Shown here: positions 14,141 through 59,679 of the stretch, piece after piece
Position numbering within the stretch: the first letter of the stretch is position 1
How the letters are laid out: every line of letters begins with the position of its first letter
Source: Pegea sp. RAD2-039
Lineage: Eukaryota > Chordata > Thaliacea > Salpida > Salpidae
Direction: 5' to 3'
Length of the DNA: 64,000 bases
NCBI GenBank assembly: GCA_034620365.1
Contig: JAQGEQ010000240.1
Span: 304,273-368,272, forward strand
Position numbers and translations under genes: made by a program
Notes under the pieces: model-generated
The model's database searches: none
The model's input: the letters and a program-made list of their open reading frames with translations, nothing else
What the model was told of the DNA's origin: nothing

Positions 14141-16139
14141 TAAAATTATGAGACAATGTTTACCTTTTCTGTCATAGATCTTATGTTACAATAAGTAGCT
14201 AAGAAAGTGTTGAAGGTAGTCTGGTTGACAGTATAACTGTTAGTATCAACCCCCGATAAAAATAGGTTGAAACAAAAAGACGACAAGAACTTAAATCTTG
14301 GCAAAATAATCATTAGCATCGGCAAATATATTACTACTCTTGCTCATAATTCGTTTATGGGAAAATCTTTAAGTTCTTGCAAGTTTTTTGCTGTTTATTT
14401 GCAGTTTCAAAATAACTTAAGTCATCTTCTTGTGTTAAGAAATTAATTGAAATATCAAAAAGCATTAATTTGTAATTTTTTTTGCTTCTAAACGAAAAGC
14501 ATCAAGATTTACAGAAAAAATCTTGTTTTTACATTTTAATTAACTGATTTCAATTTTTCATCTTGAATTTATATCATAAAAGAACTAGAATTTTCATAAT
14601 TTACAAAATGAATTTCCATATAACAATCATTCTTGATAAATTGAAATAAAGAAGTGAAGATCATAATTAGTTGAAAACTTCAAATAGAAATAATTTAATT
14701 CTCTGATGCTATTTTAGAAAATTAACATTTTTTGGAGTTAGAACAAAAATAGGCTGAAACAAATTTTTCAATAAAAATTCTTTATTCTTTCTTCCAACAT
14801 TTTTATATGAGCTATTTTATTTACTTCATCTTTTGTTTATTTATCTTAATTTAATTTTTGAATATACAAACAACCAAATAATGAGAAAAATAACAACTAA
14901 TTATGGTAATTATTAATTTCCTATTTTTTTTATAAGTGATAAATGTTTTTGAAAAGAAAATTGATCCGACCTCTAACTACAGTAAACTAGAATTTAAATT
15001 TTTTAAATTAAATATTTTAACATCTAATTTTCAGATTAAAAATTATTTTTAAACTAACAAACATGATATTTGAAACTATTCTAAAATTCAAAAATTTTAA
15101 TTTTATTTATTTTATCAATTTTTCGACTAACTTTCAACAATTTGACTATTTTAAAAGTTATTTATGTTTTTCAATGTCTTAATGAAGTTAAAATTTATTA
15201 AAACATTTTTAAAACAAAATTTTATTGGTAAATTTATATATAAAAATCTCAATAAAATTTCAAACTAGAAATCCTATTGATTTGATTTAAATTGTGAATA
15301 AAAATAATCAATTTAGAATTAAGTCGCAAAGATGTTAGTGTACAAAATAAATAAATGATTAATTTTTGTTCTAAAAAATATTAATAAAAAATATATATTT
15401 TCTTAAACAAAATTTTATTTAAAATTAAAAATAAAGTAATTATTACAATTTTTTTGTTAAAAACTATTTATTTGCATTTTATAATTTATACATAATAAAT
15501 TGATGACAAAATATTTTTTGTAAATCATTATATTATTATATATGTGAAGCATTATACGAGTTTTTATCAAACAACGCTGCAACCTCCGATTAAGTAATTC
15601 GAGCTTCGATTCCTCCTGACAAATTTCAATGCAAAGAATCCAAAAAATGCGTTCCAAGAAATTTGGTGAAAAATAGTTTCACTTTTGATTGCTTTAATCC
15701 TTTGAAAGTTACAGATAATTCAAATTTTTACTAATTTATTAAAAAATTCTAACCTGCAGCTAACGTAGGTAGTATTTAGGCCACCAAGTTTTGGTTCCTA
15801 AAAAATTGGGTCAAATATTGCCATAATTACTATAAGATTTAAAATATTTCAAATTCTTATAACTTAAAGTTAATCACTTAGTTGTTTTGGGTTCCGTTTA
15901 ATTGGAGTTTTTCCGTTATAACTGAATATATAAGGTTTTAGAAATTAAAATTCTAAAAAAACTATTTTATCAAATGATAAATAAAAGTTATATAACATTA
16001 ATAAAAGCTGGAAAATACTCAATCAGTTTAATTTAAATTATTCCAACCGATCATAAAAAGCAAAAATCTAAAACATTTTCCTAATAAAGGAATAAAGTCT
16101 TGTTCAGATCTGGTTTTTGGCTTTAAATGTCTTGTATCA
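14141..16139. other. Intergenic, no supportable gene
   Basis: AT-rich sequence with no convincing frame or RNA gene. It is the upstream region of the LDLa receptor gene; any signal-peptide exon of that gene would have to be here, but none was recognised. Confidence 0.55.
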
Positions 16140-18212: not shown

Positions 18213-20570
18213 TCAACAGTTTGCACAAATGATATCTTTACCGAATCTTTTTATACATTCATCTATGATTCGAGCAAACTTTTCAAAATTCTCATCGAGA
18301 ATTTTGAAGAAATTTGGTGGCAAAACCATCATGGTAATTAAGCTATCGATTTCATTTTTCAGCAAGCATCGTTTTGATCGGAACAAGTTTCTTCTTTGGA
18401 TCATACCAGAAGTGAATTGGCAGTTATTGAAGTAAGGAATATAATCTGAGATCGGATCAACAAACGCGTGATCAGTCTTCATAAAGATCAACAATCCGTT
18501 TAAAGATATGTGTCCTCTAGTTGGAAATGGAATTGAAGCTAAATGACCAAGCAGCAAATATTCTAAATCACTGATTTGCTTTTTACTAAAAGGCGTTACT
18601 GCATCGGTGATGACGTCAAGTTTCGGTACAGTAACGTAATGCTCGAAAGTCCATATGTCTAATCTGGGTACAATGGCACCTAGAAGAGCCCCATCTTCAT
18701 CTTTTAATTGCTTAAAATCATCAAATACAGATCCACCAATGTCTGTAGGAAAACCAGCTGTGAGCAGCTCACTTGCGTTCAAAGATCTCTCAATCACTGG
18801 AGGAGATTTAAAAAGTCCAAAGATGCGATCTAGATGATAAGTGGCAACTTGAGATGATGAATACTCATTAGGACCCTCTTTTGCGATAAACAGTGATCTA
18901 ATATGAAGATCAGAAAGCTCTATATTCATCTGGCCACCAGCTAAGCTATTCTTAGACAAGATAAGATTATCAGCATTAATCACATGACTATTGGAAGCTA
19001 AATCAGACCATTGTTGCCAATGCTCAACATGAAATGCATCAATCAAAGTTTGCTGATTGATATCTCTGTACTTTTCATCTATTCCTGCAATCTTCTGAAG
19101 ACAACTACTTTCATTAAACATTGTCAAAAGTGCGCTAAGTTTATCGCTCTTCAAGCGGTATGACGTCACACCTGATTTTGGAGTTAAATCTTGTGAATTA
19201 CTCTTCATCACTGCATGAATTTGATGAAGATTTTCTGAGTCTGGGATTACTACAAAGCTCTGACAGCTCTCATCATGAAGACAGAACTGAGCAGCCGATT
19301 CCAACGAACTCGTGCTTATGACACATCCCCAATCTACAGCACTCAAGTCACAAACAAAATTGTACTTTGGTGAAAAATCAAAATTGTCCCTTTTTTCAAA
19401 TAGATCTAAAACTGGGATCAACTCTTCTTCTTCTACATCTTCATTCTCATTAACGTCTAGATGCTGCAAAGGAAAGTTTTCAGCATCCAAATTGTTGATG
19501 AGTACTTCTGACGTCATCGTAGTCGCGCGTTTATTCTTCGATCGTCCTTTGATCTTCTGAATATATTGAAGTGCTCCTTTGATTGATATTCTAAAGTCCT
19601 TGAGACCCTCAATTAGCTCCCTAACTAATTCGGGATCAGATTCGCTGTCGGAAGCAAGGAGCAGATTTCCGAGAATAAGATGTTCTGTTACTCCCAGAAG
19701 ATTCTTTTTCCAATTGATCCCGATGCATCTGTTATGTTCACACTGGCCTTGAACTTTTCTAATAACACAGTCATTGGAAGAGTCACAAGATTGTTCCTGT
19801 ATCTGAAGATCGTTTGCAAGGATCTGCATCTTTATTATAGATCCGTTAATAATGAAACTATCCGGATACCATGACTTTACTGCAACTGATCCGAAAGGAG
19901 ATTCGGATAGATAGAGAATTAGATTGAGGAGCTGATCTGAGATGTCGAGTCTTTGTTCTAAAGGAAGTTGCTGACTTTGATGAATGTTGAAAAGATCACC
20001 AAATTCATGGAAGATTACAAATCCGGCTGAATTGATTGGCCTCTGATTTAAGTTAGAGTCTTTTCGAAAGATACAGACTCCCTTGATGTGGAGGATGTTA
20101 GGATGGTTCATCTTTATAAGAATCATCAGATCTTGGATCATCTTTAAATTCTTTAACAAAAAACATCGATCTTGAAAATCTTCATCTTCAGATCGGATCT
20201 CGCAGTTAGATGCAAGCATACGATCAATATCAAGTCTTGGAGTTTGGATCAAGATTCTCTGATCTTGATGTAAGGCATGATAGAAAAAACTATCTTCTGT
20301 GATCTTAAATAAACTCCCAATCTTCATCATCTCGAAATCTGAACAAGACCACCAATTAGCAACAAAACTGAACATGTTGAAGGACAGGATTAAGTCATTT
20401 AGATGATAAGTAAAGTCCAAGGAGTTTTCTGATGAAGATGATTTGATCAAGGAGATTATTGATTGGATTTTCGAGTTGAGAAATTGGTCTGCTGATGACA
20501 AGGAGTCAGTTGGGATTAGATTTGCAAAAGATGAAGAGATGAGAAGAAAATAGAAGATAAATGATATCAT
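18213..20570 (-). CDS. Secreted VLK/PKDCC-like plus FAM20/GASK-like fusion, likely double pseudokinase
   Basis: An intronless gene of 785 residues from the ATG at 20570 (start MISFIFYFLLISSSF, a signal peptide); the open frame continues 10 codons upstream without ATG. Residues about 55-365 follow the secreted tyrosine kinase VLK/PKDCC: NHPNILHIKGVC, then SPFGSV, an NG turn, and a Cys cluster (QSCDSSNDC). About 410-480 matches the VLK C-terminal Cys part (QFCLHDESCQSFVV). From about 490 the pattern changes to the FAM20/four-jointed/GASK secretory kinases: VATYHLDRIFGLFKSPPV, later a TDHAF segment, then a Cys-containing C-lobe. Catalytic positions are lost in both halves: the beta-3 Lys is Gln (ILIQTP), the VLK loop Asp and DLDD motif are replaced, and the FAM20 Glu and catalytic Asp are absent. 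It probably works in the Golgi or outside the cell as a binder or regulator. The fusion is inferred from one uninterrupted frame. Confidence 0.7.
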   Translation of the reverse strand: MISFIFYFLLISSSFANLIPTDSLSSADQFLNSKIQSIISLIKSSSSENSLDFTYHLNDLILSFNMFSFVANWWSCSDFEMMKIGSLFKITEDSFFYHALHQDQRILIQTPRLDIDRMLASNCEIRSEDEDFQDRCFLLKNLKMIQDLMILIKMNHPNILHIKGVCIFRKDSNLNQRPINSAGFVIFHEFGDLFNIHQSQQLPLEQRLDISDQLLNLILYLSESPFGSVAVKSWYPDSFIINGSIIKMQILANDLQIQEQSCDSSNDCVIRKVQGQCEHNRCIGINWKKNLLGVTEHLILGNLLLASDSESDPELVRELIEGLKDFRISIKGALQYIQKIKGRSKNKRATTMTSEVLINNLDAENFPLQHLDVNENEDVEEEELIPVLDLFEKRDNFDFSPKYNFVCDLSAVDWGCVISTSSLESAAQFCLHDESCQSFVVIPDSENLHQIHAVMKSNSQDLTPKSGVTSYRLKSDKLSALLTMFNESSCLQKIAGIDEKYRDINQQTLIDAFHVEHWQQWSDLASNSHVINADNLILSKNSLAGGQMNIELSDLHIRSLFIAKEGPNEYSSSQVATYHLDRIFGLFKSPPVIERSLNASELLTAGFPTDIGGSVFDDFKQLKDEDGALLGAIVPRLDIWTFEHYVTVPKLDVITDAVTPFSKKQISDLEYLLLGHLASIPFPTRGHISLNGLLIFMKTDHAFVDPISDYIPYFNNCQFTSGMIQRRNLFRSKRCLLKNEIDSLITMMVLPPNFFKILDENFEKFARIIDECIKRFGKDIICANC

Positions 20571-20634
20571 TTTTTGAGATGACTCTGAAATAAATTCCAC
20601 AAATTTTTGAGCCGTTTACGTTTAAAGGTTTGAA

Positions 20635-25311: not shown

Positions 25312-26400
25312 AGTTTATGTATTTAAGTAAAAAAAAAATTAAAAAATTACAAATTTAAAAATTACTTTGTATATTAGTTATTTGCTAAAATCTTAAAAGA
25401 AAGTTTTCTATATATATATTTTATATTATTTTTATGTTTGTAAGATTTATGTAACTCATATCTAGTTTCATTCTAGCTTGTATTTTAGCTTCTAAAATAC
25501 ACTTCTAAATACATCTACATAAAATTGATGTTTTCAAAGCTTTACACCTTAAACAAAATATAGAGTTTTAATTCAAATGTCAGATACATTAGAAAATATT
25601 TTTTTCTTTAAAGTTGATTATTAGTTATGTTTAAGTATAAAATCTTAAGATTCGTTTAATAAGTTTATTTCTAATAACTTTTTTAATTACTAATTTAGTA
25701 TTTTTCTGGAATAACTAAATTTATCTGTGTTTAAGAAAAACTTGTTTAGTTTATTATTTAAACTAACAAGGATCTGATTTACTTTGAGAATAAAATTTAC
25801 AATTCAAAGATGTAAGTCTTAAAAATCTGAAGCATTTTATAAAAAGTCTAAAATTAATTTTTTGCTTTCTATATCTCTGTTAACATCTGTCACTAAAGTG
25901 AATGAATTACTTTTGTAATTAAAGTTTAATTGAAATTTTAATTCCAGTTGTATTTATATCTTCGTGATTTGAAATTAAAAAACTCATTTAATGAAACAAC
26001 AACATGTCCCCAAATCTTGTTTAAAAGATTTTTTCGGAACTGATAAGCTTGTTGGTAACTTAAACTTATATTCATCAATTCAAATACAACAGAGATATTA
26101 ATAATGCTGAATGAAAATTTATAAAAGTTTAATTTAAATTAAATATTTTAACTCTTTCTACAGTTTTCAACGATTTTAATTTTAGTAAAAATTAAATCAA
26201 AATTTTATTATAGTTGTATTTTTCAATGTCATCATTATTATATCAGACTTAAAACCAGTTTCCTTATCAAGCTGTTGTAGCTTGGATTTTGTTAAAGTTT
26301 TTTTTAAAGATGTAACAATGTTTGCAAATTACTTACTTATACCAAGCTTAATAATAAAATTGAAAGCAGATCACAAATCATAATTTACATAAAGCTCATG
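25312..26400. repeat. Gene-less first unit of the array
   Basis: Spacer sequence of the unit is recognisable (for example the CATGTCCCCAAATCTTG segment near 26002), but it jumps near 25415 from the part just 3' of the gene to the part well 5' of it, so the whole gene and its promoter are deleted. It is more diverged than the inner units, as expected at an array edge. Confidence 0.8.
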
Positions 26401-26767
26401 TATTTAAGTAAAAAACTTCTACATATTTACACATTTAGAAAATACTTTGTATTTTAGTTATCTGCTAAAATCTTAAAAGAAAGTTCCCTATAAAAGATAA
26501 TAACTTTATTTAAAGAGTTTAAAAAATATCAAAGGAATCGTTTTTGATTTAGTTTCTTTTCTAGGACTTTTATAGAGTTTGACAAAAAACAATTTTACAC
26601 CAAAAATTACTTGAAATTTATTTAAATATTTTTCCAAAATATACTATTTAGTTTGTAATATGATAGAGACAGTTTTAGTACAAATAATTTGATTAAAAGC
26701 AAAAAGCACAACAATTTTATATCAAAAGATGATGAAAAGTTAGAACATTTATATAATTCAATTTATT

Positions 26768-27190
26768 TTATTTTGAACACATTTTGACAAGATCTTTGTT
26801 ATTTGCGACACATTGACAAGCCTTAGGAAGAAGTAATCTTCCTATATTTCCTTCTTGATCTTTAACTTCTTCGGTGAAAAGGATTGCCTCATTATGAAAT
26901 CTAACCATTTTTCCACATGTAGTAGGATTGAGGCAATATGGATGACATCTTTTGATCATGATTAGACCAGTTCGAAGATTTCCACAATAAATCTCGATAT
27001 CACTTGATTGAGATATAGTGAACAAGTTCTTTCTTCGGCGAGTAAAACTTTCACAATTCTTCAAAATGAAATCTTTGGTAGATCTTGGAATTCCTTTTAA
27101 AATAATTGAAGATGGTAGCAGTTGTTTTTGAGCTTTCACCAAAAGAGGACAAGTTATTGAAAAAATGATGAAGAAAATAATTGATTTCAT
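26768..27190 (-). CDS. Array gene 1: secreted 140-residue eight-cysteine protein (most diverged)
   Basis: One exon, ATG at 27190, stop TAA at 26768. A signal peptide covers about residues 1-20 (hydrophobic FFIIFSITC, cut near VKA-Q). The mature part has eight Cys at 46, 69, 82, 86, 92, 125, 127 and 138, and a basic run RRRK at 51-54 that could be a processing site. This copy differs from the others at I4, P15, K22, Y85 and G93 while all eight Cys stay, and shares L76, A129 and M137 with genes 5 and 7. I recognise no family by sequence; the closing C-x-C plus a last Cys recalls small cystine-knot cytokines, which is only an inference. Expression as an individual gene is likely because each copy has its own TATA box. 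Confidence 0.85.
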   Translation of the reverse strand: MKSIIFFIIFSITCPLLVKAQKQLLPSSIILKGIPRSTKDFILKNCESFTRRRKNLFTISQSSDIEIYCGNLRTGLIMIKRCHPYCLNPTTCGKMVRFHNEAILFTEEVKDQEGNIGRLLLPKACQCVANNKDLVKMCSK

Positions 27191-27270
27191 TTCAGTTGTT
27201 TTGAAACTTGTTGATAATCAGTATTACTATAATATCAGTTACTTTATGATATTACTTGAAATGTGTTTGC

Positions 27271-27374
27271 TTATATATTATCTTACCGAAAGTTGAAATA
27301 ATATTTAAAAATAGAAATTAAACTAAATCGAAAACTTTATGTTGACGTTCAGTTAACTAACGTTAAAACATCAC
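27271..27374 (-). promoter_or_regulatory. Promoter of array gene 1 (TATA plus degraded inverted repeat)
   Basis: TATATAAG at 27271-27279, about 80-90 bases before the ATG. The upstream element at 27341-27374 keeps the TTGACGTT half but has AACATCA instead of AACGTCA in the other half, so the palindrome is damaged in this edge copy. Confidence 0.55.
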
Positions 27375-28452
27375 AAAAATTTACAACTTATATCAATTTA
27401 ACTTCCTTCTTCAAGTAGTAAATTCAGTAATTGTTGCAACATTGCAGATTTAGTTTTTTATGATAATGTTTCAATAGGTTATTTATATATATGGGGTTTT
27501 GATAAACTTTCTGGGGAAAATAGAAGTGGTGAAAACTAAAATCTAAAAGAAGTTAAATGAATCATAGATAATTTTTAATATAAACATTTTATATTATTTT
27601 TTTGTTTGTGACATTTATGTTATATATGTAACTCATATCTAGTTTCTTTCTAACTTGTATTATAGCTTTTAAAATATACTTCTAAATACATCTACTAATA
27701 TTGATATTTTCAAATCATTACACCTTAAACAAAATCTAGAGTTTTAATTCAAAAGTCAAATACAACAGAGACATTAAAAATACTGAATGAAAATTTATAA
27801 AAGTTAAATTTAAATTAAATATTTTAACTCTTTCTACAGTTTTCAACGATTTTAATTTTAGTAAAAATTAAATTAAAATTTTATTAGATCTCTATTTTTC
27901 AATGTCATCATTATTATATCAGACTTAAAACCAGTTTCTTTATAGAGCTGACGTAGCTTGGATTTTGTTAAAGCTTTTTTAAAGATGTAACAATGTATGC
28001 AATTTACTTACTTATACCAAACTATATAATAAAATTGAAAGCAGATCACAAATCATAATTAACATAAAGCTCATGTATTTAAGTAAAAAACTTCTACATA
28101 ATTACATGTTTAGAAAATACTTTGTATTTTAGTTATCTGCTAAAATCTTGAAAGAAAGTTTTCTATAAAAGATAATAACTTTATTTAACATATTAAAAAA
28201 ACATCAAAGATGTCGTTGTAGATTTAGTTTCTTTTTTAAAACTTTTACATAATTTGATAATAAATAATTTTACTCAGATGTTTAAACGAAACTTATTTAA
28301 ATATTTTTCTAAAATATACTATTTACCTTGACTTAGTTTGTAATATGAAAGAGAAAGTTTTTTTACAAAAAATTTTATTAAAAGCGAAAAGCACAAAAAT
28401 TTTATACTAAAAGATGATGAAAAGTTAGAACATTTATATAATTCAATTTAAT

Positions 28453-28875
28453 TTATTTTGAACACATTTTGACAAGATCTTTGTTATTTACGACACATTG
28501 ACAGGCCTTAGGAAGAAGTAATCTTCCTATATTTCCTTCTTGATCTTTAACTTCTTCGGTGAAAAGGATTGCCTCATTATGAAATCTAACCATTTTTCGA
28601 CATGTAGTAGGATTGAGGCAATCTGGATGACATCTTTTGATCATGATTACACCAGTTCGCAGATTTCCACAATAAATCTCGATATCACTTGATTGAGATA
28701 TAGTGAACAAGTTCTTTCTTCGGCGAGTAAAACTTTCACAATTCTTCAAAATGAAATCTTTGGTAGATCTTGGAATTCCTTTTAAAATAATTGAAGATGG
28801 TAGCAGTTGTTGTTGAGCTTTCACCAAAAGATGACAAGTTATTGAAAAAATGATAAAGAAAATAGTTGATTTCAT
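28453..28875 (-). CDS. Array gene 2: secreted 140-residue eight-cysteine protein
   Basis: Same single-exon layout and signal peptide as its array neighbours, start MKSTIFFIIF. It carries V76 and V129 like genes 3, 4 and 6, but M137 like genes 1, 5 and 7, so it is a mosaic of the two subtypes. The Lys-136/Cys-138 end and the C125-x-C127 pair are intact. The spacer downstream of it (toward gene 1) is the one shortened by about 500 bases. No frameshift or stop is present, so it should be functional. Confidence 0.85.
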   Translation of the reverse strand: MKSTIFFIIFSITCHLLVKAQQQLLPSSIILKGIPRSTKDFILKNCESFTRRRKNLFTISQSSDIEIYCGNLRTGVIMIKRCHPDCLNPTTCRKMVRFHNEAILFTEEVKDQEGNIGRLLLPKACQCVVNNKDLVKMCSK

Positions 28876-28954
28876 TTCAGTTGTTTTGAAACTTGTTGAT
28901 AATCAGTATTACTATAATATCAATTACTTTAGTGATATTACTTGAAATGTGCTT

Positions 28955-29060
28955 GCTTATATATTATCTTACCGAAAGTTGAAATAATATTTAAAAATAG
29001 AAATTAAACTTAATCAAAAACTTTGTGTTGACGTTCAGGTAACTAACGTTAAAACGTCAG
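28955..29060 (-). promoter_or_regulatory. Promoter of array gene 2 (TATA plus inverted repeat)
   Basis: TATATAAGC at about 28955-28964 and the inverted TGACGTT...AACGTCA element at 29028-29060. Spacing to the ATG is as in the other copies. Confidence 0.6.
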
Positions 29061-30635
29061 ATAGATTTACAGTTTATATCAATTTAACTTCCTTCTTCAA
29101 GTAGTAAATTCAGTAATTGTTGCAACATTGCAGATATAGTTTTTTTGTTAATGTTTCAATAGGTTATTTTTATATATATGGGATTTTGATAAACTTTCTG
29201 GGGAAAATAGAAGTGGTGAAAACTAAAATCTAAAAGAAGTTAAATGAATCATAGATAATTTTTAATATAAATATTTTATATTATTTTTATGTTTGTGAAA
29301 TTTATGTAATTTATGTAACTCTTATCTAGTTTTTTTCTAACTTGTATTATAGCTTCTAAAATATACTTCTAAATACATCTACTAAAAATTGATGTTTTCA
29401 AATCTTTACACCTTAAACAAAATATAGAGTTTTAATTCAAAAGTCAGCTACATTAGAAAAAAATTTTTTCTTTAAAATTGGTTATTAGTTTTTATTTAAA
29501 TATAAAATCTTAAGATTGGTTTAATATATTTATTTGTAATAACTTTTTTAATTCCAAATTTAGTGTTTTTTGGAATAACTACATTTGTCTGTGTTTAAAA
29601 ATATTTGTTTAGTTTATTTTATAAACTATCAAGGATCTGATTTACTTTGAGAATAAAATTTACAATTCAAAGATGTAAATCTTCAAAATTTGAAGCATTT
29701 TATAAAAAGTCTAAAATTATTTTGTTGCTTTCTATATCTCTTTTAACATCTGTCACTAAAGTGAATGAATTACTTTTGTAATTAAAGTTTAATTGAGATT
29801 TTAATTCCAGTTGTATTTATATCTTTGTGATTTGAAATTTAAAAACTCATTTAATGCAACAACATGTCCCCAAATCTTGTTTAAAAGATTTTTCGGAACT
29901 GATAAGCTTGTTGGTAACTTAAACTTCTATTCATCAATTCAAATACAACAGAGACATTAATAATGCTGAATGAAAATTTACAAAAATTTAATTTAAATTA
30001 ATTATTTTAACTCTTTCTACAGTTTTCAACGATTTTAATTTTAGTAAAAATTAAATCAAAATTTTATTATAGTTGTATTTTTCAATGTCATCATTATTAT
30101 ATCAGACTTAAAACCAGTTTCTTTATCAAGATGTCGTAGCTTGGATTTTGTTAAAGTTTTTTTAAAAGATGTAACAATGTTTGCAAATTACTTACTTATA
30201 CTAAACTATATAATAAAATTGAAAGCAGATCACAAATCATAATTTACATAAAGCTCATGTATTTAAGTAGAAAACCTCTACATAATTACATGTTTAGAAA
30301 ATACTTTGTATTTTAGTTATCTGCTAAAATCTTAAAAGAAAGTGTTCTATAAAACTATCGACTTTATTTAACGTATTAAAATAACATCAAAGAAGTTGTT
30401 TTTGATTTAGTTTCTTTTTTAAAACTGTTTCAGAATTTGATAGAAAATGATTTTACTCAAAAGTTTAAACAAATTTTATTTAAATGTTTTTCTAAAATAT
30501 ACTATTTACCTTGACTTAATTTGTAATATGAAAGAGACAGTTTGTTTACAAATGATTTTATTAAAAGCAAAAAGCACAACAATTTTATACTTAAAGTAGA
30601 TGAAAAGTTAGAACATTTATATAATTCAATTTAAT

Positions 30636-31058
30636 TTATTTTGAACACGTTTTGACAAGATCTTTGTTATTTACGACACATTGACAAGCCTTAGGAAGAA
30701 GTAATCTTCCTATATTTCCTTCTTGATCTTTAACTTCTTCGGTGAAAAGGATTGCCTCATTATGAAATCTAACCATTTTTCGACATGTAGTAGGATTGAG
30801 GCAATCTGGATGACATCTTTTGATCATGATTACACCAGTTCGCAGATTTCCACAATAAATCTCGATATCACTTGATTGAGATATAGTGAACAAGTTCTTT
30901 CTTCGGCGAGTAAAACTTTCACAATTCTTCAAAATGAAATCTTTGGTAGATCTTGGAATTCCTTTTAAAATAATTGAAGATGGTAGCAGTTGTTGTTGAG
31001 CTTTCACCAAAAGATGACAAGTTATTGAAAAAATGATGAAGAAAATAGTTGATTTCAT
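30636..31058 (-). CDS. Array gene 3: secreted 140-residue eight-cysteine protein
   Basis: Intact single-exon copy of the V76/V129/T137 subtype, the commonest form in the middle of the array. It can serve as the reference protein: signal peptide 1-20, a Ser/Ile-rich stretch to residue 45, the first Cys at 46, a basic run at 51-54, then the Cys-rich core 69-92, an acidic EEVKDQEG loop and the C-x-C end. The small mature size (about 120 residues) and the even Cys count fit a disulfide-stabilised secreted factor. Target and function are unknown. Confidence 0.85.
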   Translation of the reverse strand: MKSTIFFIIFSITCHLLVKAQQQLLPSSIILKGIPRSTKDFILKNCESFTRRRKNLFTISQSSDIEIYCGNLRTGVIMIKRCHPDCLNPTTCRKMVRFHNEAILFTEEVKDQEGNIGRLLLPKACQCVVNNKDLVKTCSK

Positions 31059-31137
31059 TTCAGTTGTTTTGAAACTTGTTGATAATCAGTATTACTATAA
31101 TATCAGTTACTTTAGTGATATTACTTGAAATGTGCTT

Positions 31138-31242
31138 GCTTATATATTATCTTACCGAAAGTTGAAATAATATTTAAAAATAGAAATTAAACTTAATCGA
31201 AAACTTTATGTTGACGTTCAGGTAACTAACGTTAAAACGTCA
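31138..31242 (-). promoter_or_regulatory. Promoter of array gene 3 (TATA plus inverted repeat)
   Basis: TATA box at 31138-31148; inverted element at 31210-31242 with TTGACGTT at one end, a TAACGTTA centre-side palindrome and AACGTCA at the other end. Confidence 0.6.
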
Positions 31243-32822
31243 CATAAATTTACAGTTTATATCAATTTAACTTCCTTCTTCAAGTAGTAAATTCAGTAAT
31301 TGTTGCAACATTGCAGATATAGTTTTTTATGATAATGTTTCAGCAAGTTATTTATATATATATGGGATTTTGATAAACTTTCGGGGGAAAATAGAAGTGG
31401 TGAAAACTAAAATCTAAAAGAAGTTAAATGAATCATAGATAATTTTTAATATAAACATTTTATATTATTTTTATGTTTGTGAGATTTATGTAATTTATGT
31501 AACTCATATCTAGTTTCTTTCTAACTTGTATTTTAGCTTTTAAAATATACTTCTAAACACATCTACTATTATTGATGTTTTCAAATCTTTACACCTTAAA
31601 CAAAATCTAGAGTTTTAATTCAAAAGTCAGCTACATTAGAAAAAAATTTTTTCTTTAAAATTGGTTATTAGTTTTTATTTAAATATAAAATCTTAAGATT
31701 GGTTTAATATATTTATTTGTAATAACTTTTTTAATTCCAAATTTAGTGTTTTTTGGAATAACTACATTTGTCTGTGTTTAAAAATATTTGTTTAGTTTAT
31801 TTTATAAACTATCAAGGATCTGATTTACTTTGAGAATAAAATTTACAATTCAAAGATGCAAATCTTAAAAATTTGAAACATTTTATAAATAGTCTAAAAT
31901 TATTTTGTTGCTTTCTATATTTCTTTTAACATCTGTCACTAAAGTGAATGAATTACTTTTGTAATTAAAGTTTAATTGAGATTTTAATTCCAGTTGTATT
32001 TATATCTTTGTGATTTGAAATTTAAAAACTCATTTAATGAAACAACAACATGTCCCCAAATCTTGTTTAAAAGATTTTTCGGAACTGATAAGCTTGTTGG
32101 TAACTTAAACTTCTATTCATCAATTCAAATACAACAGAGACATTAATAATACTGAATGAAAATTTATAAAAATTTAATTTAAATTAAATCTTTTAACTCT
32201 TTCTACAGTTTTCAACGATTTTAATTTTAGTAAAAATTAAATCAAAATTTTATTATAGTTGTATTTTTCAATGTCATCATTATTATATCAGACTTAAAAC
32301 CAGTTTCTTTATCAAGATGTCGCAGCTTGGATTTTGTTAAAGTTTTTTTAAAAGATGTAACAATGTTTGCAAATTACTTACTTATACTAAACTATATAAT
32401 AAAATTGAAAGCAGATCACAAATCATAATTTACATAAAGCTCATGTATTTAAGTAAAAAACCTCTATATAATTACATGTTTAGAAAATACTTTGTATTTT
32501 AGTTATCTGCTAAAATCTTAAAAGAAAGTGTTCTATAAAAGCTATCGACTTTATTTAACGTATTAAAATAACATCACAGAAGTTGTTTTTGATTTAGTTT
32601 CTTTTTTAAAACTGTTTCAGAATTTGATAGAAAATGATTTTACTCAAAAGTTTAAACAAATTTTATTTAAATGTTTTTCTAAAATATACTATTTACCTTG
32701 ACTTAATTTGTAATATGAAAGAGACAGTTTGTTTACAAATGATTTTATTAAAAGCAAAAAGCACAACAATTTTATACTTAAAGTAGATGAAAAGTTAGAA
32801 CATTTATATAATTCAATTTAAT

Positions 32823-33245
32823 TTATTTTGAACACGTTTTGACAAGATCTTTCTTATTTACGACACATTGACAAGCCTTAGGAAGAAGTAATCTTCCTAT
32901 ATTTCCTTCTTGATCTTTAACTTCTTCGGTGAAAAGGATTGCCTCATTATGAAATCTAACCATTTTTCGACATGTAGTAGGATTGAGGCAATCTGGATGA
33001 CATCTTTTGATCATGATTACACCAGTTCGCAGATTTCCACAATAAATCTCGATATCACTTGATTGAGATATAGTGAACAAGTTCTTTCTTCGGCGAGTAA
33101 AACTTTCACAATTCTTCAAAATGAAATCTTTGGTAGATCTTGGAATTCCTTTTAAAATAATTGAAGATGGTAGCAGTTGTTGTTGAGCTTTCACCAAAAG
33201 ATGACAAGTTATTGAAAAAATGATGAAGAAAATAGTTGATTTCAT
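32823..33245 (-). CDS. Array gene 4: secreted 140-residue eight-cysteine protein
   Basis: Identical to gene 3 at the protein level except N131 is replaced by Lys, giving an NKKD segment after the C-x-C pair. It belongs to the V76/V129/T137 subtype. The flanking 3' sequence also matches gene 3 (ending TTTATATAATTCAATTTAA on the plus strand), so genes 3 and 4 look like the product of the same duplication. Confidence 0.85.
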   Translation of the reverse strand: MKSTIFFIIFSITCHLLVKAQQQLLPSSIILKGIPRSTKDFILKNCESFTRRRKNLFTISQSSDIEIYCGNLRTGVIMIKRCHPDCLNPTTCRKMVRFHNEAILFTEEVKDQEGNIGRLLLPKACQCVVNKKDLVKTCSK

Positions 33246-33324
33246 TTCAGTTGTTTTGAAACTTGTTGATAATCAGTATTACTATAATATCAGTTACTTT
33301 AGTGATGTTACTTGAAATGTGCTT

Positions 33325-33430
33325 GCTTATATATTATCTTACCGAAAGTTGAAATAATATTTAAAAATAGAAATTAAACTAAATCAAAAACTTTGTGTTG
33401 ACGTTCAGGTAACTAACGTTAAAACGTCAG
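33325..33430 (-). promoter_or_regulatory. Promoter of array gene 4 (TATA plus inverted repeat)
   Basis: TATA box at about 33325-33335; inverted TGACGT element at 33398-33430, intact. Confidence 0.6.
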
Positions 33431-35010
33431 ATAGATTTACAGATTATATCACTTTAACTTCCTTCTTCAAGTAGTAAATTCACTAATTGTTGCAACATTG
33501 CAGATATAGTATTTTATGATAATGTTTCAGCAAGTTATTTATATATATATGGGATTTTGATAAACTTTCTGGGGAAAATAGAAGTGGTACAAACTAAAAT
33601 CTAAAAGAAGTTAGATGAATCATAGATAATTTTTAATATAAACACTTTATATTATTTTTTTGTTTGTGACATTTATGTTATATATGTAACTCTTATCTAG
33701 TTTCTTTCTAACTTGTATTTAGCTTTTAAAATATACTTCTAAATACATCTACTAATATTGATGTTTTCAAATCTTTACACCTTAAACAAAATCTAGAGTT
33801 TTAATTCAAAAGTCAGCTACATTAGAAAAAACTTTTTTATTTAAAATTGGTTATTAGTTTTTATTTAAATATATAATCTTAAGATTGGTTTAATATATTT
33901 ATTTTGTAATAACTTTTTTAATTCCAAATTTAGTGTTTTTTGGAATAACTACATTTGTCTGTGTTTAAAAATATTTGTTTAGTTTATTTTATAAACTATC
34001 AAGGATCTGATTTACTTTGAGAATAAAATTTACAATTCAAAGATGTAAATCTTCAAAATTTGAAGCATTTTATAAAAAGTCTAAAATTATTTTGTTGCTT
34101 TCTATATCTCTTTTAACATCTGTCACTAAAGTGAATGAATTACTTTTGTAATTAAAGTTTAATTGAGATTTTAATTCCAGTTGTATTTATATCTTTGTGA
34201 TTTGAAATTTAAAAACTCATTTAATGAAACAACAACATGTCCCCAAATCTTGTTTAAAAGATTTTTCGGAACTGATAAGCTTGTTGGTAACTTAAACTTC
34301 TATTCATCAATTCAAATACAACAGAGACATTAATAATGCTGAATGAAAATTTATAAAAATTTAATTTAAATTAATTATTTTAACTCTTTCTACAGTTTTC
34401 AAACGATTTTAATTTTAGTAAAAATTAAATCAAAATTTTATTATAGTTGTATTTTTCAATGTCATCATTATTATATCAGACTTAAAACCAGTTTCTTTAT
34501 CAAGATGTCGTAGCTTGGATTTTGTTAAAGTTTTTTTAAAAGATGTAACAATGTTTGCAAATTACTTACTTATACTAAACTATATAATAAAATTGAAAGC
34601 AGATCACAAATCATAATTTACATAAAGCTCATGTATTTAAGTAAAAAACCTCTACATAATTACATGTTTAGAAAATACTTTGTATTTTAGTTATCTGCTA
34701 AAATCTTAAAAGAAAGTGTTCTATAAAAGCTATCGACTTTATTTAACGTATTAAAATAACATCAAAGAAGTTGTTTTTGATTTAGTTTCTTTTTTTAAAC
34801 TGTTTCAGAATTTGATAGAAAATGATTTTACTTAAACGTTTAAACGAAACTTATTTAAATATTTTGCTAAAATATACTATTTACCTTGACTTAGTTTTTT
34901 AATATGAAAGAGACTATTTTTTTACAAATGATTTTAATAAAAACGAAAAGCACAACAATTTTATATAAAAGTAGATGAAAAGTTAGAACATTTCTGTAAT
35001 TCAAATTAAT

Positions 35011-35433
35011 TTATTTTGAACACATTTTGACAAGATCTTTGTTATTTGCGACACATTGACAAGCCTTAGGAAGAAGTAATCTTCCTATATTTCCTTCTTG
35101 ATCTTTAACTTCTTCGGTGAAAAGGATTGCCTCATTATGAAATCTAACCATTTTTCGACATGTAGTAGGATTGAGGCAATCTGGATGACATCTTTTGATC
35201 ATGATTAGACCAGTTCGCAGATTTCCACAATAAATCTCGATATCACTTGATTGAGATATAGTGAACAAGTTCTTTCTACGGCGAGTAAAACTTTCACAAT
35301 TCTTCAAAATGAAATCTTTGGTAGATCTTGGAATTCCTTTTAAAATAATTGAAGATGGTAGCAGTTGTTGTTGAGCTTTCACCAAAAGATGACAAGTTAT
35401 TGAAAAAATGATGAAGAAAATAGTAGATTTCAT
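35011..35433 (-). CDS. Array gene 5: secreted 140-residue eight-cysteine protein
   Basis: Intact copy of the L76/A129/M137 subtype. The protein is identical to that of gene 7, and the two also share a distinctive 3' flank (CATTTCTGTAATTC on the plus strand) that the genes between and before them lack. One silent change, CTACGGC for CTTCGGC near 35277, separates the coding sequences of 5 and 7. Thus genes 5 and 7 are closer to each other than either is to gene 6, which sits between them. Confidence 0.85.
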   Translation of the reverse strand: MKSTIFFIIFSITCHLLVKAQQQLLPSSIILKGIPRSTKDFILKNCESFTRRRKNLFTISQSSDIEIYCGNLRTGLIMIKRCHPDCLNPTTCRKMVRFHNEAILFTEEVKDQEGNIGRLLLPKACQCVANNKDLVKMCSK

Positions 35434-35512
35434 TTCAGTTGTTTTGAAACTTGTTGATAATCAGTATTACTATAATATCAGTTACTTTAGTGATATTACT
35501 TGAAATGTGCTT

Positions 35513-35617
35513 GCTTATATATTATCTTACCGAAAGTTGAAATAATATTTAAAAATAGAAATTAAACTTAATCGAAAACTTTATGTTGACGTTCAGGTAA
35601 CTAACGTTAAAACGTCA
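35513..35617 (-). promoter_or_regulatory. Promoter of array gene 5 (TATA plus inverted repeat)
   Basis: TATA box at about 35513-35523; inverted TGACGT element at 35585-35617, intact. Confidence 0.6.
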
Positions 35618-37198
35618 CATAAATTTACAGTTATATCAATTTAACTTCCTTCTTCAAGTAGTAAATTCAGTAATTGTTGCAACATTGCAGATATAGTTTT
35701 TTATGATAATGTTTCAGCAAGTTATTTATATATATATGGGATTTTGATAAACTTTCGGGGGAAAATATAAGTGGTGAAAACTAAAATCTAAAAGAAGTTA
35801 GATGAATCATAGATAATTTTTAATATAAACATTTTATATTATTTTTATGTTTGTGAGATTTATGTAATTTATGTAACTCATATCTAGTTTCTTTCTAACT
35901 TGTATTTTAGCTTCTAAAATATACTTCTAAATACATCTACTTAAAATTGATGTTTTCAAATATTTACACCTTAAACAAAATCTAGAGTTTTAATTCAAAT
36001 GTCAGATACATTAGAAAAAAATTTTTTGTTTAAAATTGGTTATTAGTTTTTATTTAAATATATAATCTTAAGATTGGTTTAATATATTTATTTGTAATAA
36101 CTTTTTTAATTCCAAATTTAGTGTTTTTTGGAATAACTACATTTGTCTGTGTTTAAAAATATTTGTTTAGTTTATTTTATAAACTATCAAGGATCTGATT
36201 TACTTTGAGAATAAAATTTACAATTCAAAGATGCAAATCTTAAAAATTTGAAGCATTTTATAAAAAGTCTAAAATTATTTTGTTGCTTTCTATATCTCTT
36301 TTAACATCTGTCATTAAAGTGAATGAATTACTTTTGTAATTAAAGTTTAATTGAGATTTTAATTCCAGTTGTATTTATATCTTTGTGATTTGAAATTTAA
36401 AAACTCATTTAATGAAACAACAACATGTCCCCAAATCTTGTTTATAAGATTTTTTCGGAACTGATAAGCTTGTTGGTAACTTAAACTTCTATTCATCAAT
36501 TCAAATACAACAGAGATATTAATAATGCTGAATGAAAATTTATAAAAATTTAATTTAAATTAAATCTTTTAACTCTTTCTACAGTTTTCAACGATTTTAA
36601 TTTTAGTAAAAATTAAATCAAAATTTTATTATAGTTGTATTTTTCAATGTCATCATTATTATATCAGACTTAAAACCAGTTTCTTATCAAGCTGTCGTAG
36701 CTTGGATTTTGTTAAAGTTTTTTTAAAAGATGTAACAATGTTTGCAAATTACTTACTTATACTAAACTATATAATAAAATTGAAAGCAGATCACAAATCA
36801 TAATTTACATAAAGCTCATGTATTTAAGTAAAAAACTTCTACATAATTACACATTTAGAAAATACTTTGTATTTTAGTTATCTGCTAAAATCTTAAAAGA
36901 AAGTGTTCTATAAAAGCTATCGACTTTATTTAACGTATTAAAATAACATCAAAGAAGTCGTTTTTGATTTAGTTTCTTTTTTTAAACTGTTTCAGAATTT
37001 GATAGAAAATGATTTTACTTAAACGTTTAAACGAAACTTATTTAAATATTTTTCTAAAATATACTATTTACCTTGACTTAGTTTGTAATATGAAAGAGAC
37101 TAGTTTTTTTACAAATGATTTTATTAAAAGCGAAAAGCACAACAATTTTATACTAAAAGATGATGAAAAGTTAGAACATTTATATAATTCAAATTAAT

Positions 37199-37621
37199 TT
37201 ATTTTGAACACGTTTTGACAAGATCTTTGTTATTTACGACACATTGACAAGCCTTAGGAAGAAGTAATCTTCCTATATTTCCTTCTTGATCTTTAACTTC
37301 TTCGGTGAAAAGGATTGCCTCATTATGAAATCTAACCATTTTTCGACATGTAGTAGGATTGAGGCAATCTGGATGACATCTTTTGATCATGATTACACCA
37401 GTTTGTAGATTTCCACAATAAATCTCGATATCACTTGATTGAGATATAGTGAACAAGTTCTTTCTTCGGCGAGTAAAACTTTCACAATTCTTCAAAATGA
37501 AATCTTTGGTAGATCCTGGAATTCCTTTTAAAATAATTGAAGATGGTAGCAGTTGTTGTTGAGCTTTCACCAAAAGATGACAAGTTATTGAAAAAATGAT
37601 GAAGAAAATAGTTGATTTCAT
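37199..37621 (-). CDS. Array gene 6: secreted 140-residue eight-cysteine protein
   Basis: Intact copy of the V76/V129/T137 subtype with two private changes, R36G (GIPGSTKD) and R73Q (NLQTG). Both remove a positive charge outside the Cys framework. Its 3' flank mixes the two flank types (TATATAATTC followed by AAATTAATTT), which suggests recombination or conversion with its neighbours. Confidence 0.85.
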   Translation of the reverse strand: MKSTIFFIIFSITCHLLVKAQQQLLPSSIILKGIPGSTKDFILKNCESFTRRRKNLFTISQSSDIEIYCGNLQTGVIMIKRCHPDCLNPTTCRKMVRFHNEAILFTEEVKDQEGNIGRLLLPKACQCVVNNKDLVKTCSK

Positions 37622-37700
37622 TTCAGTTGTTTTGAAACTTGTTGATAATCAGTATTACTATAATATCAGTTACTTTAGTGATGTTACTTGAAATGTGCTT

Positions 37701-37805
37701 GCTTATATATTATCTTACCGAAAGTTGAAATAATATTTAAAAATAGAAATTAAACTTAATCGAAAACTTTATGTTGACGTTCAGGTAACTGACGTTAAAA
37801 CGTCA
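37701..37805 (-). promoter_or_regulatory. Promoter of array gene 6 (TATA plus inverted repeat)
   Basis: TATA box at 37701-37711; inverted element at 37773-37805, with CTGACGTT in place of CTAACGTT inside, which adds a further TGACGT half-site. Confidence 0.6.
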
Positions 37806-39387
37806 CATAAATTTACAGTTTATATCAATTTAACTTCCTTCTTCAAGTAGTAAATTCAGTAATTGTTGCAACATTGCAGATATAGTTTTTTATGATAATG
37901 TTTCAGCAAGTTATTTATATATATATGTGATTTTGATAAACTTTCGGGGGAAAATAGAAGTGGTGAAAACTAAAGTCTAAAAGAAGTTAGATGAATCATA
38001 GATAATTTTTAATATAAACATTTTATATTATTTTTATGTTTGTGAGATTTATGTAATTTATGTAACTCATATCTAGTTTCTTTCTAACTTGTATTTTAGC
38101 TTTTAAAATATACTTCTAAATACATCTACTTAAAATTGATGTTTTCAAATCTTTACACCTTAAACAAAATCTAGAGTTTTAATTCAAATGTCAGATACAT
38201 GAGAAAACATTTTGTTGTTTAAAGTTGATTATTAGTTATGTTTAAGTATAAAATCTTAAGATTCGTTTAATAAGTTTATTTGTAATAACTTTTTTAATTA
38301 CTAATTTAGTATTTTTCTGGAATAACTAAATTTATCTGTGTTTAAGAAAAACTTGTTTAGTTTATTTTATAAACTTTCAAGGATCTGATTTACTTTGAGA
38401 ATAAAATTTACAATTCAAAGATGTAAATCTTAAAAATCTGAAGTATTTTATAAAAAGTCTAAAATTAATTTTTGCTTTCTATATCTCTGTTAACACCTGT
38501 CACTAAAGTGAATGAATTACTTTTGTAATTAAATTTTAATTGAGATTTTAATTCCAGTTGTATTTATATCTTTGTGATTTGAAATTAAAAAACTCATTTA
38601 ATGAAACAACAACATGTCCCCAAATCTTGTTTATAAGATTTTTTCGGAACTGATAAGCTTGTTGGTAACTTAAACTTCTATTAATCAATTCAAATACAAC
38701 AGAGACATTAATCATGCTGAATGAAAAATTATAAAAGTTTAATTTAAATTAAATATTTTAACTCTTTCTACAGTTTTCAACGATTTTAATTTTAGTAAAA
38801 ATTAAATCAAAATTTTATTAGAGTTGTATTTTTCAATGTCCTCATTATTAAATTAGACTTAAAACCAGTTTCCTTATAGAGCTGTCGTAGCTTGCATTTT
38901 TTTAAAGCTTTTTTTAAAGATGTATCAATGTTTGCAATTTACTTACTTATACCAAACTATATAATAAAATTGAAAGCAGATCACAAATCATAATTTACAT
39001 AAAGCTCATGTATTTAAGTAAAAAACTTCTACATAATTACACATTTAGAAAATACTTTGTATTTTAGTTATCTGCTAAAATCTTAAAAGAAAGTTTTCTA
39101 TAAAAGCTATCGACTTTATTTAACATATTAAAATAACATCAAAGAAGTCGTTTTTGATTTAGTTTCTTTTTTAAAACTGTTTCAGAATTTGATAGAAAAT
39201 GATTTTACTTAAACGTTTAAACGAAACTTATTTAAATATTTTTTTAAAATATACTATTTACCTTGACTTAGTTTTTTAATATGAAAGAGACTATTTTTTT
39301 ACAAATGATTTTAATAAAAACGAAAAGCACAACAATTTTATATAAAAGTAGATGAAAAGTTAGAACATTTCTGTAATTCAAATTAAT

Positions 39388-39810
39388 TTATTTTGAACAC
39401 ATTTTGACAAGATCTTTGTTATTTGCGACACATTGACAAGCCTTAGGAAGAAGTAATCTTCCTATATTTCCTTCTTGATCTTTAACTTCTTCGGTGAAAA
39501 GGATTGCCTCATTATGAAATCTAACCATTTTTCGACATGTAGTAGGATTGAGGCAATCTGGATGACATCTTTTGATCATGATTAGACCAGTTCGCAGATT
39601 TCCACAATAAATCTCGATATCACTTGATTGAGATATAGTGAACAAGTTCTTTCTTCGGCGAGTAAAACTTTCACAATTCTTCAAAATGAAATCTTTGGTA
39701 GATCTTGGAATTCCTTTTAAAATAATTGAAGATGGTAGCAGTTGTTGTTGAGCTTTCACCAAAAGATGACAAGTTATTGAAAAAATGATGAAGAAAATAG
39801 TTGATTTCAT
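39388..39810 (-). CDS. Array gene 7: secreted 140-residue eight-cysteine protein (last copy)
   Basis: Intact copy of the L76/A129/M137 subtype with the same protein as gene 5. Upstream of it the unit is complete, including TATA box and inverted repeat, and the repeated spacer continues for about 1.2 kb to the sharp array edge near 41045. As the gene with the longest intact upstream unit at the array border it may be the source end of the amplification, but the direction cannot be told from the sequence alone. Confidence 0.85.
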   Translation of the reverse strand: MKSTIFFIIFSITCHLLVKAQQQLLPSSIILKGIPRSTKDFILKNCESFTRRRKNLFTISQSSDIEIYCGNLRTGLIMIKRCHPDCLNPTTCRKMVRFHNEAILFTEEVKDQEGNIGRLLLPKACQCVANNKDLVKMCSK

Positions 39811-39889
39811 TTCAGTTGTTTTGAAACTTGTTGATAATCAGTATTACTATAATATCAGTTACTTTAGTGATATTACTTGAAATGTGCTT

Positions 39890-39994
39890 GCTTATATATT
39901 ATCTTACCGAAAGTTGAAATAATATTTAAAAATAGAAATTAAACTTAATCAAAAACTTTATGTTGACGTTCAGGTAACTAACGTTAAAACGTCA
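39890..39994 (-). promoter_or_regulatory. Promoter of array gene 7 (TATA plus inverted repeat)
   Basis: TATA box at 39890-39900; inverted TGACGT element at 39962-39994, intact. Confidence 0.6.
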
Positions 39995-41045
39995 CATAAA
40001 TTTACAGTTTATATCATTTTAACTTCCTTCTTCAAGTAGTAAATTCAGTAATTGTTGCAACATTGCAGATATAGTTTTTTATGATAATGTTTCAGCAAGT
40101 TATTTATATATATATGGGATTTTGATAAACTTTCGGGGGAAAATAGAAGTGGTGAAAACTAAAATCTAAAAGAAGTTAGATGAATCATAGATAATTTTTA
40201 ATATAAACATTTTATATTATTTTTATGTTTGTGACATTTATGTAATTTATGTAACTCATATCTAGTTTCTTTCTAACTTGTATTTTAGCTTTTAAAATAT
40301 ACTTCTAAATACATCTACTAATATTGATGTTTTCAAATCTTTACACCTTAAACAAAATCTAGAGTTTTAATTCAAAAGTCAGCTACATTAGAAAACAATT
40401 TTTTATTTAAAATTGGTTATTAGTTTTTATTTAAATATATAATCTTAAGATTGGTTTAATATATTTATTTTGTAATAACTTTTTTAATTCCAAATTTAGT
40501 GTTTTTTGGAATAACTACATTTGTCTGTGTTTAAAAATATTTGTTTAGTTTATTTTATAAACTATCAAGGATCTGATTTACTTCGAGAATAAAATTTACA
40601 ATTCAAAGATGTAAATCTTAAAAATATGAAGCATTTTATGAAAAGTCTAAAATTATTTTGTTGCTTTCTATATCTCTTTTAACATCTGTCACTAAAGTGA
40701 TTGAATTACTTTTGTAATTAAAGTTTAATTGAGATTTTAATTCCAGTTGTATTTATATCTTTGTGATTTGAAATTTAAAAACTCATTTGATGAAACAACA
40801 ACATGTCCCCAAATCTTGTTTAAAAGACTTTTTCGGAACTGATAAGCTTGTTGGTAACTTAAACTTTTATTCATCAATTCAAATACAACAGAGATATTAA
40901 TAATGCTGAATGAAAATTTTTAGAAGTTTAATTTAAATTAAATATTTTAACTCTTTCTACAGTTTTCAACGATTTTAATTTTAGTAAAAATTAAATCAAA
41001 ATTTTATTATAGTTGTATTTTTCAATGTCATCACTATTTTATCAG

Positions 41046-41610
41046 CTTTTAAATCAGTTACTTCAACTTTAGATTGCTAACTTGTGATTTGTATAACTAC
41101 CAGTATCATATTTTCTTCACTTATTTTTGTTTTTTGAGTTTATTGCTTCTGATTTCTTTTATTGATTGATGACCTTTCAATTATCTCTTTGCTCATAAAT
41201 TTTTTAAACTTTTTATATCTTTTAGCTTGATAATTTTAAAATATTAAAACAAAGTCTTTATGCTAATGAAAGTCTAAATACTATGAAATAATTATAAATA
41301 CGCTGATTATGTAAAAGTTTGTTAATGGTTTAGTTTTCTTTGAAAAAAGTATCTTTAAGAAAATATCTTCAATAAAGAAAGTAATTAGTAATGTATTCAT
41401 TTGTTTTATTTCCTTATGATTTCTGAAAAAATTTTTTATTACAATGCAACTAAATTTTCTACTTTAAAAATTACTTTTTATATAATTTTATATAATACAT
41501 AATCTGAAAAAGAGTTTTCAAATTAATAATTGAATTGGAATTTTTTCTTTATTTATTTATTAATAAAAAAACTTGGAAATAAAAAGTTTTATAAGACTTA
41601 AAAAAGCTTG
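41046..41610. other. Intergenic between the array and IFT27, nothing seen
   Basis: AT-rich, not related to the array unit. It holds the 3' flank of the IFT27 gene. Confidence 0.6.

Positions 41611-53246: not shown

Positions 53247-59679
<6,433 letters not shown>

What the first reader, a model, noticed from the sequence alone, without database searches (positions are those of the whole stretch)
25312..41045. Tandem array of seven small secreted eight-cysteine protein genes
Seven intact, same-strand genes encode nearly the same 140-residue secreted protein, each in its own ~2.19-kb unit with its own promoter. All eight cysteines are kept. I recognise no family. Such an array usually reflects either a need for high dose (for example a structural, defence or mating-related secreted factor) or recent unequal crossing-over. 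It is the strongest candidate for an undescribed system in the window.
Basis: partly seen in the sequence, partly recalled or inferred. Interest (0 to 1): 0.8.

Follow-up and report, generated by a model that had tools for sequence, protein, structure and literature searches.

The report
Tandem array of IL-17-like cytokine genes
A small animal, probably a rotifer, carries seven nearly identical back-to-back copies of a gene for a small secreted protein that looks like a very diverged relative of the immune signalling protein interleukin-17; arrays of such genes are already known in other invertebrates.

Summary
In detail: seven intact 140-codon ORFs lie on the minus strand (26768-39810) in tandem repeats of about 2.19 kb, 93-98% identical; the first repeat lacks about 0.5 kb. 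Coding DNA varies less than spacer (11/423 vs 157/1620 columns, p = 2.5e-7), and TATATAAG sits 87-88 bases before every ATG.

"No family" changes. Pfam and PDB give no direct match, but the host genome (105.7 Mb animal; rotifer inferred) holds one dispersed relative (29% identity, six shared cysteines) and six diverged IL-17-like proteins, one over the Pfam IL17 cut-off. Profile comparison joins array plus relative to these six (86.6%, P = 4.5e-6; 0 of 400 cysteine-fixed shuffles reach it; TGF-beta control 0.1%). The genome also encodes SEFIR (IL-17-receptor-type) proteins. Best reading: diverged IL-17-like secreted cytokines, multiplied by unequal crossing-over.

The link is indirect: nothing against canonical IL-17, the reverse profile search is not clean, the W of the CPW/SPW motif is missing, AlphaFold failed. 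Tandem IL-17 arrays are known in molluscs and sea urchin.

The parts
25317..41063 (-). whole tandem array, including partial repeat ends
   Evidence: self-BLASTN, alignment of seven repeats
26768..27190 (-). copy 1, 140-aa secreted protein, most diverged copy; its repeat lacks about 0.5 kb of spacer
28453..28875 (-). copy 2
30636..31058 (-). copy 3
32823..33245 (-). copy 4
35011..35433 (-). copy 5; protein identical to copy 7
37199..37621 (-). copy 6
39388..39810 (-). copy 7; its repeat is cut at the upstream end of the array
27270..27277 (-). TATATAAG, copy 1
   Evidence: 87 bases before ATG
28956..28963 (-). TATATAAG, copy 2
   Evidence: 88 bases before ATG
31139..31146 (-). TATATAAG, copy 3
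   Evidence: 88 bases before ATG
33326..33333 (-). TATATAAG, copy 4
   Evidence: 88 bases before ATG
35514..35521 (-). TATATAAG, copy 5
   Evidence: 88 bases before ATG
37702..37709 (-). TATATAAG, copy 6
   Evidence: 88 bases before ATG
39891..39898 (-). TATATAAG, copy 7
   Evidence: 88 bases before ATG

Best explanation
Each repeat is a complete small gene: TATA-type promoter, a one-frame coding sequence, a signal peptide cut near A20/Q21 (by eye, -3/-1 rule), and a basic mature protein of about 13.7 kDa. The mature protein is a highly diverged IL-17-like cytokine of a rotifer-type animal. C82-x3-C86 and C125-x-C127 would form the IL-17-type half cystine knot (C82-C125, C86-C127), C46-C69 a third bond shared with most of the genome's other diverged IL-17-like proteins, and C92-C138 a bond private to the array (pairings inferred). 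It would act as a secreted dimer on the genome's SEFIR-type receptors, most likely as an epithelial, immune or tissue signal. Seven copies arose by unequal crossing-over and are kept alike by exchange and selection on the gene region, raising dose or allowing strong induction. Shown: genes, repeats, lower variation of the genes, profile link through C57, SEFIR genes in the genome. Inferred: fold, pairing, receptor binding, function.
For: One dispersed relative at G000:C57 (29% identity over residues 6-136, E 8.2e-5; mature part of copy 6 alone E 8.4e-5; reciprocal search finds all seven copies at 2.2e-5 to 1.3e-4); six cysteines and CxPxCLNP...PxxCQCV are shared (3 of 7 copies plus C57). Own-genome search with Pfam IL17 finds 5 places, 3 over the cut-off; L018 scores 43.4 bits, E 4.7e-11. 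Searches with L022 and L024 expose four diverged members on C3. Array+C57 (A5) against the six-member family (A7): hhalign 86.6%, P 4.5e-6, score 36.9; 0 of 400 cysteine-fixed column shuffles reach it (max 25.6); TGF-beta control 0.1%. A five-row version (A4): 77.1%, P 2e-5; 0 of 300 cysteine-fixed and 0 of 300 free shuffles. Adding human and C29 IL-17 to A7: 79.6%, 0 of 250 shuffles. The A7 profile, built without array or C57, ranks C57 (E 1.4e-4) and then six of seven array copies (E 0.1-0.17, not significant alone) directly behind four of its own members among 752 ORFs. The canonical set A9 (C29 genes and L018) matches human IL-17F structures at E 5.6e-5. SEFIR: 6 matches, 5 over the cut-off; the two ORFs checked, 608 and 591 aa, hold SEFIR.
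Against: No Pfam family at E up to 10 for the two array copies tested of seven, or for C57. PDB gives chance matches only. No direct profile link to human or C29-type IL-17 (0.1-0.2%), where the TGF-beta control scores no lower (0.5-1.4%); with L018 added 1.9%, and 4 of 250 shuffles do as well. Array without C57 gives only 35.9% to A7, 1.1% if L018 is left out and 5.6% to A4; A5 to A7 without L018 is 54.9%; single A7 members against A5 give 0.1-13%, one of them (L025) no better than against TGF-beta. The reverse search with the A5 profile is not clean: two C278 frames judged retroelement-like (E 0.038, 0.064) rank before the best A7 member (L023, E 0.084). Copy 1 ranks low with the A7 profile (E 1.6). 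The Trp of the CPW/SPW motif is missing. Both AlphaFold models failed (pLDDT 39.6 and 43.6), so the fold is untested. No expression data.
Confidence: 0.65

Rival explanations
1. A lineage-specific secreted cysteine-rich effector (antimicrobial, venom-like, cuticle or egg-shell protein) with a cysteine spacing that only resembles IL-17; the array serves bulk dose.
For: No direct database match; basic protein, pI 9.1-9.5; the array itself suggests dose; two cysteines not shared with C57; reverse profile search not clean.
Against: Shuffles that keep the cysteines in place do not reach the observed profile score (0 of 300; 0 of 400), so more than cysteine spacing is shared; the C57 relative bridges the two groups.
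Confidence: 0.24
2. A member of another cystine-knot growth-factor family (TGF-beta, Spaetzle, noggin or trunk type).
For: A CxxxC ... CxC cysteine layout is common to many cystine knots (recalled).
Against: TGF-beta set A8 from the same genome gives 0.1%. The Spaetzle family rang nowhere, controls included, so that search says nothing. Noggin and trunk types were not tested.
Confidence: 0.07
3. Assembly artefact: collapsed or falsely multiplied repeat, or decaying duplicates without function.
For: No reads available; tandem repeats are easily misassembled; the copy number may be wrong.
Against: Copies differ by 1.7-6.9% with private indels; all seven frames intact; coding columns vary less, p = 2.5e-7; sequence without array repeats lies on both sides in one 368-kb contig.
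Confidence: 0.04

Closest known systems
Diverged IL-17-like genes of the same genome (C3 cluster L023, L024, L025, L047; C11 L018; C265 L027)
   Same: Cysteines at the places of C46, C69, C82, C86, C125 and C127 in most members, C-terminal PxxCxC in five of six (L018's first cysteine lies outside its trimmed row); profile link
   Different: Five of six have W in the PW place and P[VIL] further on; frames of C3 members suggest an upstream exon (by eye), while the array genes are one open frame; the array has two cysteines of its own (C92, C138)
Sea urchin SpIL17-1 tandem cluster (PMC5457136, passages and listed abstract)
   Same: Tandem cluster of eight genes for IL-17 proteins; eight conserved cysteines reported
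   Different: 59.8 kb, two exons per gene, clear IL-17 proteins, gut expression in the response to Vibrio; the array has no expression data and is far more diverged
Expanded IL-17 repertoires of molluscs and others (PMC8353272, section 13 and passages)
   Same: IL-17 genes often in tandem duplications; 6-8 cysteines
   Different: CPW motif, recognisable IL-17 domain; the species table of that paper lists no rotifer
Human IL-17A and IL-17F (PDB chains)
   Same: CxnC ... CxC layout
   Different: No significant match to array plus C57; Cx4C in the human proteins, Cx3C in the array

Membership tests
IL-17 (Pfam PF06083) | score over the curated Pfam cut-off | tested here: not met
   0 families up to E 10 for copies 1 and 5 (2 of 7 tested) and for C57; the same genome's L018, L019, L020 and L021 pass
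IL-17 (Pfam PF06083) | four cysteines of the half cystine knot (CxnC ... CxC) | tested here: met
   C82, C86, C125, C127 in 7 of 7 copies and in C57; pairing itself not testable
IL-17 (Pfam PF06083) | CPW/SPW motif (as described in PMC8353272) | tested here: not met
   no Trp in the array proteins; five of the six A7 members keep the W
IL-17 (Pfam PF06083) | profile-level homology to accepted members | tested here: inconclusive
   86.6% to the genome's diverged family anchored by L018, but 0.1-1.9% to canonical sets
IL-17 (Pfam PF06083) | cystine-knot fold | tested here: inconclusive
   AlphaFold pLDDT 39.6 and 43.6; no fold search was made on such models
IL-17 (Pfam PF06083) | secretion signal | tested here: inconclusive
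   hydrophobic N terminus with V18-K19-A20 before Q21 in 7 of 7, by eye; no signal-peptide program was available
IL-17 signalling system | SEFIR-domain genes in the same genome | tested here: met
   6 matches, 5 over the cut-off; SEFIR confirmed in the two ORFs checked, from two of the six loci
IL-17 signalling system | receptor binding and downstream response | not testable with these tools
   needs experiment
TGF-beta (PF00019) | profile similarity | tested here: not met
   A5 vs A8 0.1%

The most novel reading that the evidence does not exclude
The array encodes a rotifer-specific, released IL-17-derived signal whose dose is set by gene number, for example a density or mixis-type signal between individuals rather than an immune cytokine within one.
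Probability: 0.04. Interest if true: 0.85.

Novelty: new variant of a known kind. Interest (0 to 1): 0.4.

Why it matters
If right, it adds a strongly diverged branch to IL-17 biology in an animal group that the comparative IL-17 paper seen here does not list, with ligand-like and receptor-like genes in one small genome, and gives a compact case of concerted evolution of a cytokine array. It also shows how an orphan secreted protein can be placed by using the host genome's own family members as stepping stones.

Tried and rejected
Direct searches: Pfam none for copies 1 and 5, PDB one chance match at E 1.6 for copy 5 and two for C57 (E 0.2, 0.63), viral contigs none. Profiles A4, A6 and A5 against PDB gave no IL-17 hit, nor did L018 alone, so only the A9 set reaches solved IL-17s; 25 of its 30 listed hits are IL-17 family chains, five are not. 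AlphaFold failed twice, so no fold search was made.

Rows dropped before the profile tests: two C278 matches (E 1.26, 1.5; one stop inside each), judged retroelement-like by eye, though their frames score E 0.038 and 0.064 with the A5 profile; C3:3973634 (E 0.19; no IL17 match). The three C29 genes were left out of A7 as canonical type and used in A9. A5 used 3 of the 7 array copies plus C57. A7 rows were trimmed to the domain. The 752 ORFs come from the window and six fetched loci, not the whole genome, and L041 repeats part of the window.

The genome search with one whole repeat as DNA returned one 47-bp piece and not the array itself, so it says nothing on copy number. The Spaetzle search rang nowhere, controls included. 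Rfam reported nothing in the array at gathering scores. The mixis-signal idea is kept only as the novel case: PMC3701536 (passages) says the known signal's N terminus resembles a mammalian steroidogenesis-inducing protein; its size of about 39 kDa is recalled and does not fit 13.7 kDa.

Papers: PMC5457136, PMC3701536 and PMC6555955 (not used) passages only; PMC8353272 passages and section 13; PMC11954553 passages and section 6; all others search listings only. That no rotifer IL-17 turned up in print rests on (9 of 9 papers listed; 11 of 11; 6 of 6; 15 of 12,283; 15 of 80,800) in an open-access library and is weak.

Full report
What is there. Seven 140-codon open frames, on the minus strand, lie in a tandem repeat from about 25317 to 41063. 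Five repeats are 2183-2189 bp; the first lacks about 0.5 kb of spacer and the last is cut at its upstream end. Pairwise identity is 93.1-98.3%. Copies 5 and 7 encode the same protein. The mature part carries eight cysteines in 7 of 7 copies (46, 69, 82, 86, 92, 125, 127, 138), plus C14 in the signal peptide.

Are they genes? Coding columns vary about four-fold less than non-coding ones (odds ratio 0.25, p = 2.5e-7 in six units; 0.23, p = 3.0e-10 in seven). The 100 bases before the ATG are also quiet (2 of 100 and 3 of 99 variable columns), and TATATAAG stands 87-88 bases before the ATG in 7 of 7. Of the 16 variable coding columns 11 change an amino acid, so protein constraint alone is not strong; constraint on the whole gene region, or homogenising exchange, also fits. 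Among 50 informative sites in six units 539 of 1225 pairs fail the four-gamete test, as expected from exchange between repeats.

Host. The window is G000:C114:304273-368272, the end of a 368-kb contig, in a genome of 105.7 Mb and 387 contigs. U2, U5 and U6 RNA genes in the window and IL-17 and TGF-beta families in the genome mark an animal. Window GC is 26.7%. In a published table of monogonont rotifer assemblies 10 of 11 rows have 24.95-31.03% GC; Brachionus plicatilis is given as 106.9 Mb, 716 scaffolds, 26.75% GC, and Sinantherina socialis as 107.1 Mb, 25.04% (PMC11954553, section 6). A monogonont rotifer, most likely a Brachionus, is therefore my inference; no marker gene was tested.

Relatives. 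The genome holds one dispersed relative on C57: 29% identity, E 8.2e-5, reciprocal E of 2.2e-5 to 1.3e-4 for the seven copies, and E 8.4e-5 with the mature part of copy 6 alone. Six cysteines are shared (46, 69, 82, 86, 125, 127). The array's C92 and C138 are not shared, and C57 has two mature cysteines of its own; each pair may form a private bond (inference).

Link to IL-17. The Pfam IL17 family has five places in the genome, three over the cut-off. Scanned singly, L018 (C11) and L019, L020, L021 (C29) pass the cut-off, L023 and L024 match weakly (E 0.008, 0.039), and L025 and L027 do not match; L047 was not scanned. Searches with L022 and L024 show four diverged members within about 14 kb on C3. 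The six diverged proteins (A7: L018, L027, L023, L024, L025, L047) hold together in leave-one-out tests (92.1-98.4%). Array plus C57 (A5) matches A7 at 86.6%, P = 4.5e-6, against 0 of 400 cysteine-fixed shuffles (max 25.6 vs 36.9) and 0.1% for a TGF-beta set from the same genome. A profile of A7 alone, run over 752 ORFs from the window and six loci, puts four of its own members first, C57 fifth (E 1.4e-4) and six array copies next (E 0.1-0.17); array copy 1 falls to E 1.6.

Limits. The link is a chain. Without C57 the array reaches only 35.9%, and 1.1% if L018 is also left out; A5 against A7 without L018 gives 54.9%; single A7 members against A5 give 0.1-13%. Against canonical IL-17 (human, C29) there is nothing (0.1-0.2%; the TGF-beta control scores 0.5-1.4% there), and adding L018 gives 1.9%, matched by 4 of 250 shuffles. 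In the reverse direction the A5 profile puts two C278 frames (E 0.038, 0.064) before the best A7 member (L023, E 0.084). The array lacks the W of the CPW/SPW motif. AlphaFold gave pLDDT 39.6 and 43.6. I therefore call it IL-17-like and do not file it as a member of PF06083.

How it would work. Secreted as a basic protein of about 13.7 kDa without N-glycosylation sites, folded by two knot bonds and extra bonds, dimeric, sensed by SEFIR receptors. The genome has six SEFIR matches, five over the cut-off. The two ORFs examined (608 and 591 aa) hold SEFIR at residues 379-523 and 266-403, behind a hydrophobic stretch and an N-terminal part that looks extracellular (by eye). Function is most likely an epithelial, immune or tissue signal with dose or induction raised by copy number; none of this is tested.

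Known or new. Tandem IL-17 clusters are known in sea urchin (eight SpIL17-1 genes in 59.8 kb; PMC5457136, passages) and in molluscs and a hemichordate (PMC8353272). The species table of the latter has no rotifer. The find is thus a new variant of a known kind; interest moderate.

Noticed in passing
G000, 27 places, e.g. L048-L057: TGF-beta ligand genes: 27 matches listed, 16 of them with an open frame of 149 aa, on C36, C128, C166, C23, C238, C271 and C31; the three of these that were read (L055, L056, L057) are nearly identical. Looks like a recent dispersed amplification of one TGF-beta ligand.
   Followed up: partly
window 61979-63871: Cluster of spliceosomal RNA genes U2 (+), U5 (-) and U6 (-) within 1.9 kb.
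   Followed up: no
window 1-637 and 5539-6175: Direct repeat of 637 bp, 97.5% identical; the second copy overlaps a multi-pass membrane-like frame, 5356-5826, without a Pfam match that resembles rolling-stone proteins (recalled).
   Followed up: no
window 18213-20615 (-): Single 800-aa open frame with a borderline match to the FAM69/PIP49 kinase domain (25.4 bits, cut-off 25.2) and a signal-like stretch near its start (by eye).
   Followed up: no
window 16032-17831 (+): 599-aa frame with an LDL-receptor class A match (35.9 bits, cut-off 24.1) followed by seven-helix-like segments (by eye): perhaps an LDLa-type GPCR.
   Followed up: no
window 53717-58229 (-): Frames with an anticodon-binding domain over its cut-off and a kinase match under its cut-off: perhaps a GCN2-type kinase gene.
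   Followed up: no
spacer of the array, e.g. unit 34631-36818 (-): A 66-aa frame in the spacer of unit 5; units 2-4 lack one base inside it and unit 1 lacks the stretch. Possibly a remnant of another gene.
   Followed up: no
L064, G000:C67:436029-436075: 47-bp stretch 87% identical to part of the array repeat, elsewhere in the genome.
   Followed up: no
array protein residues 51-54: RRRK run between C46 and C69, a possible furin-type site, not kept in C57 (by eye).
   Followed up: no
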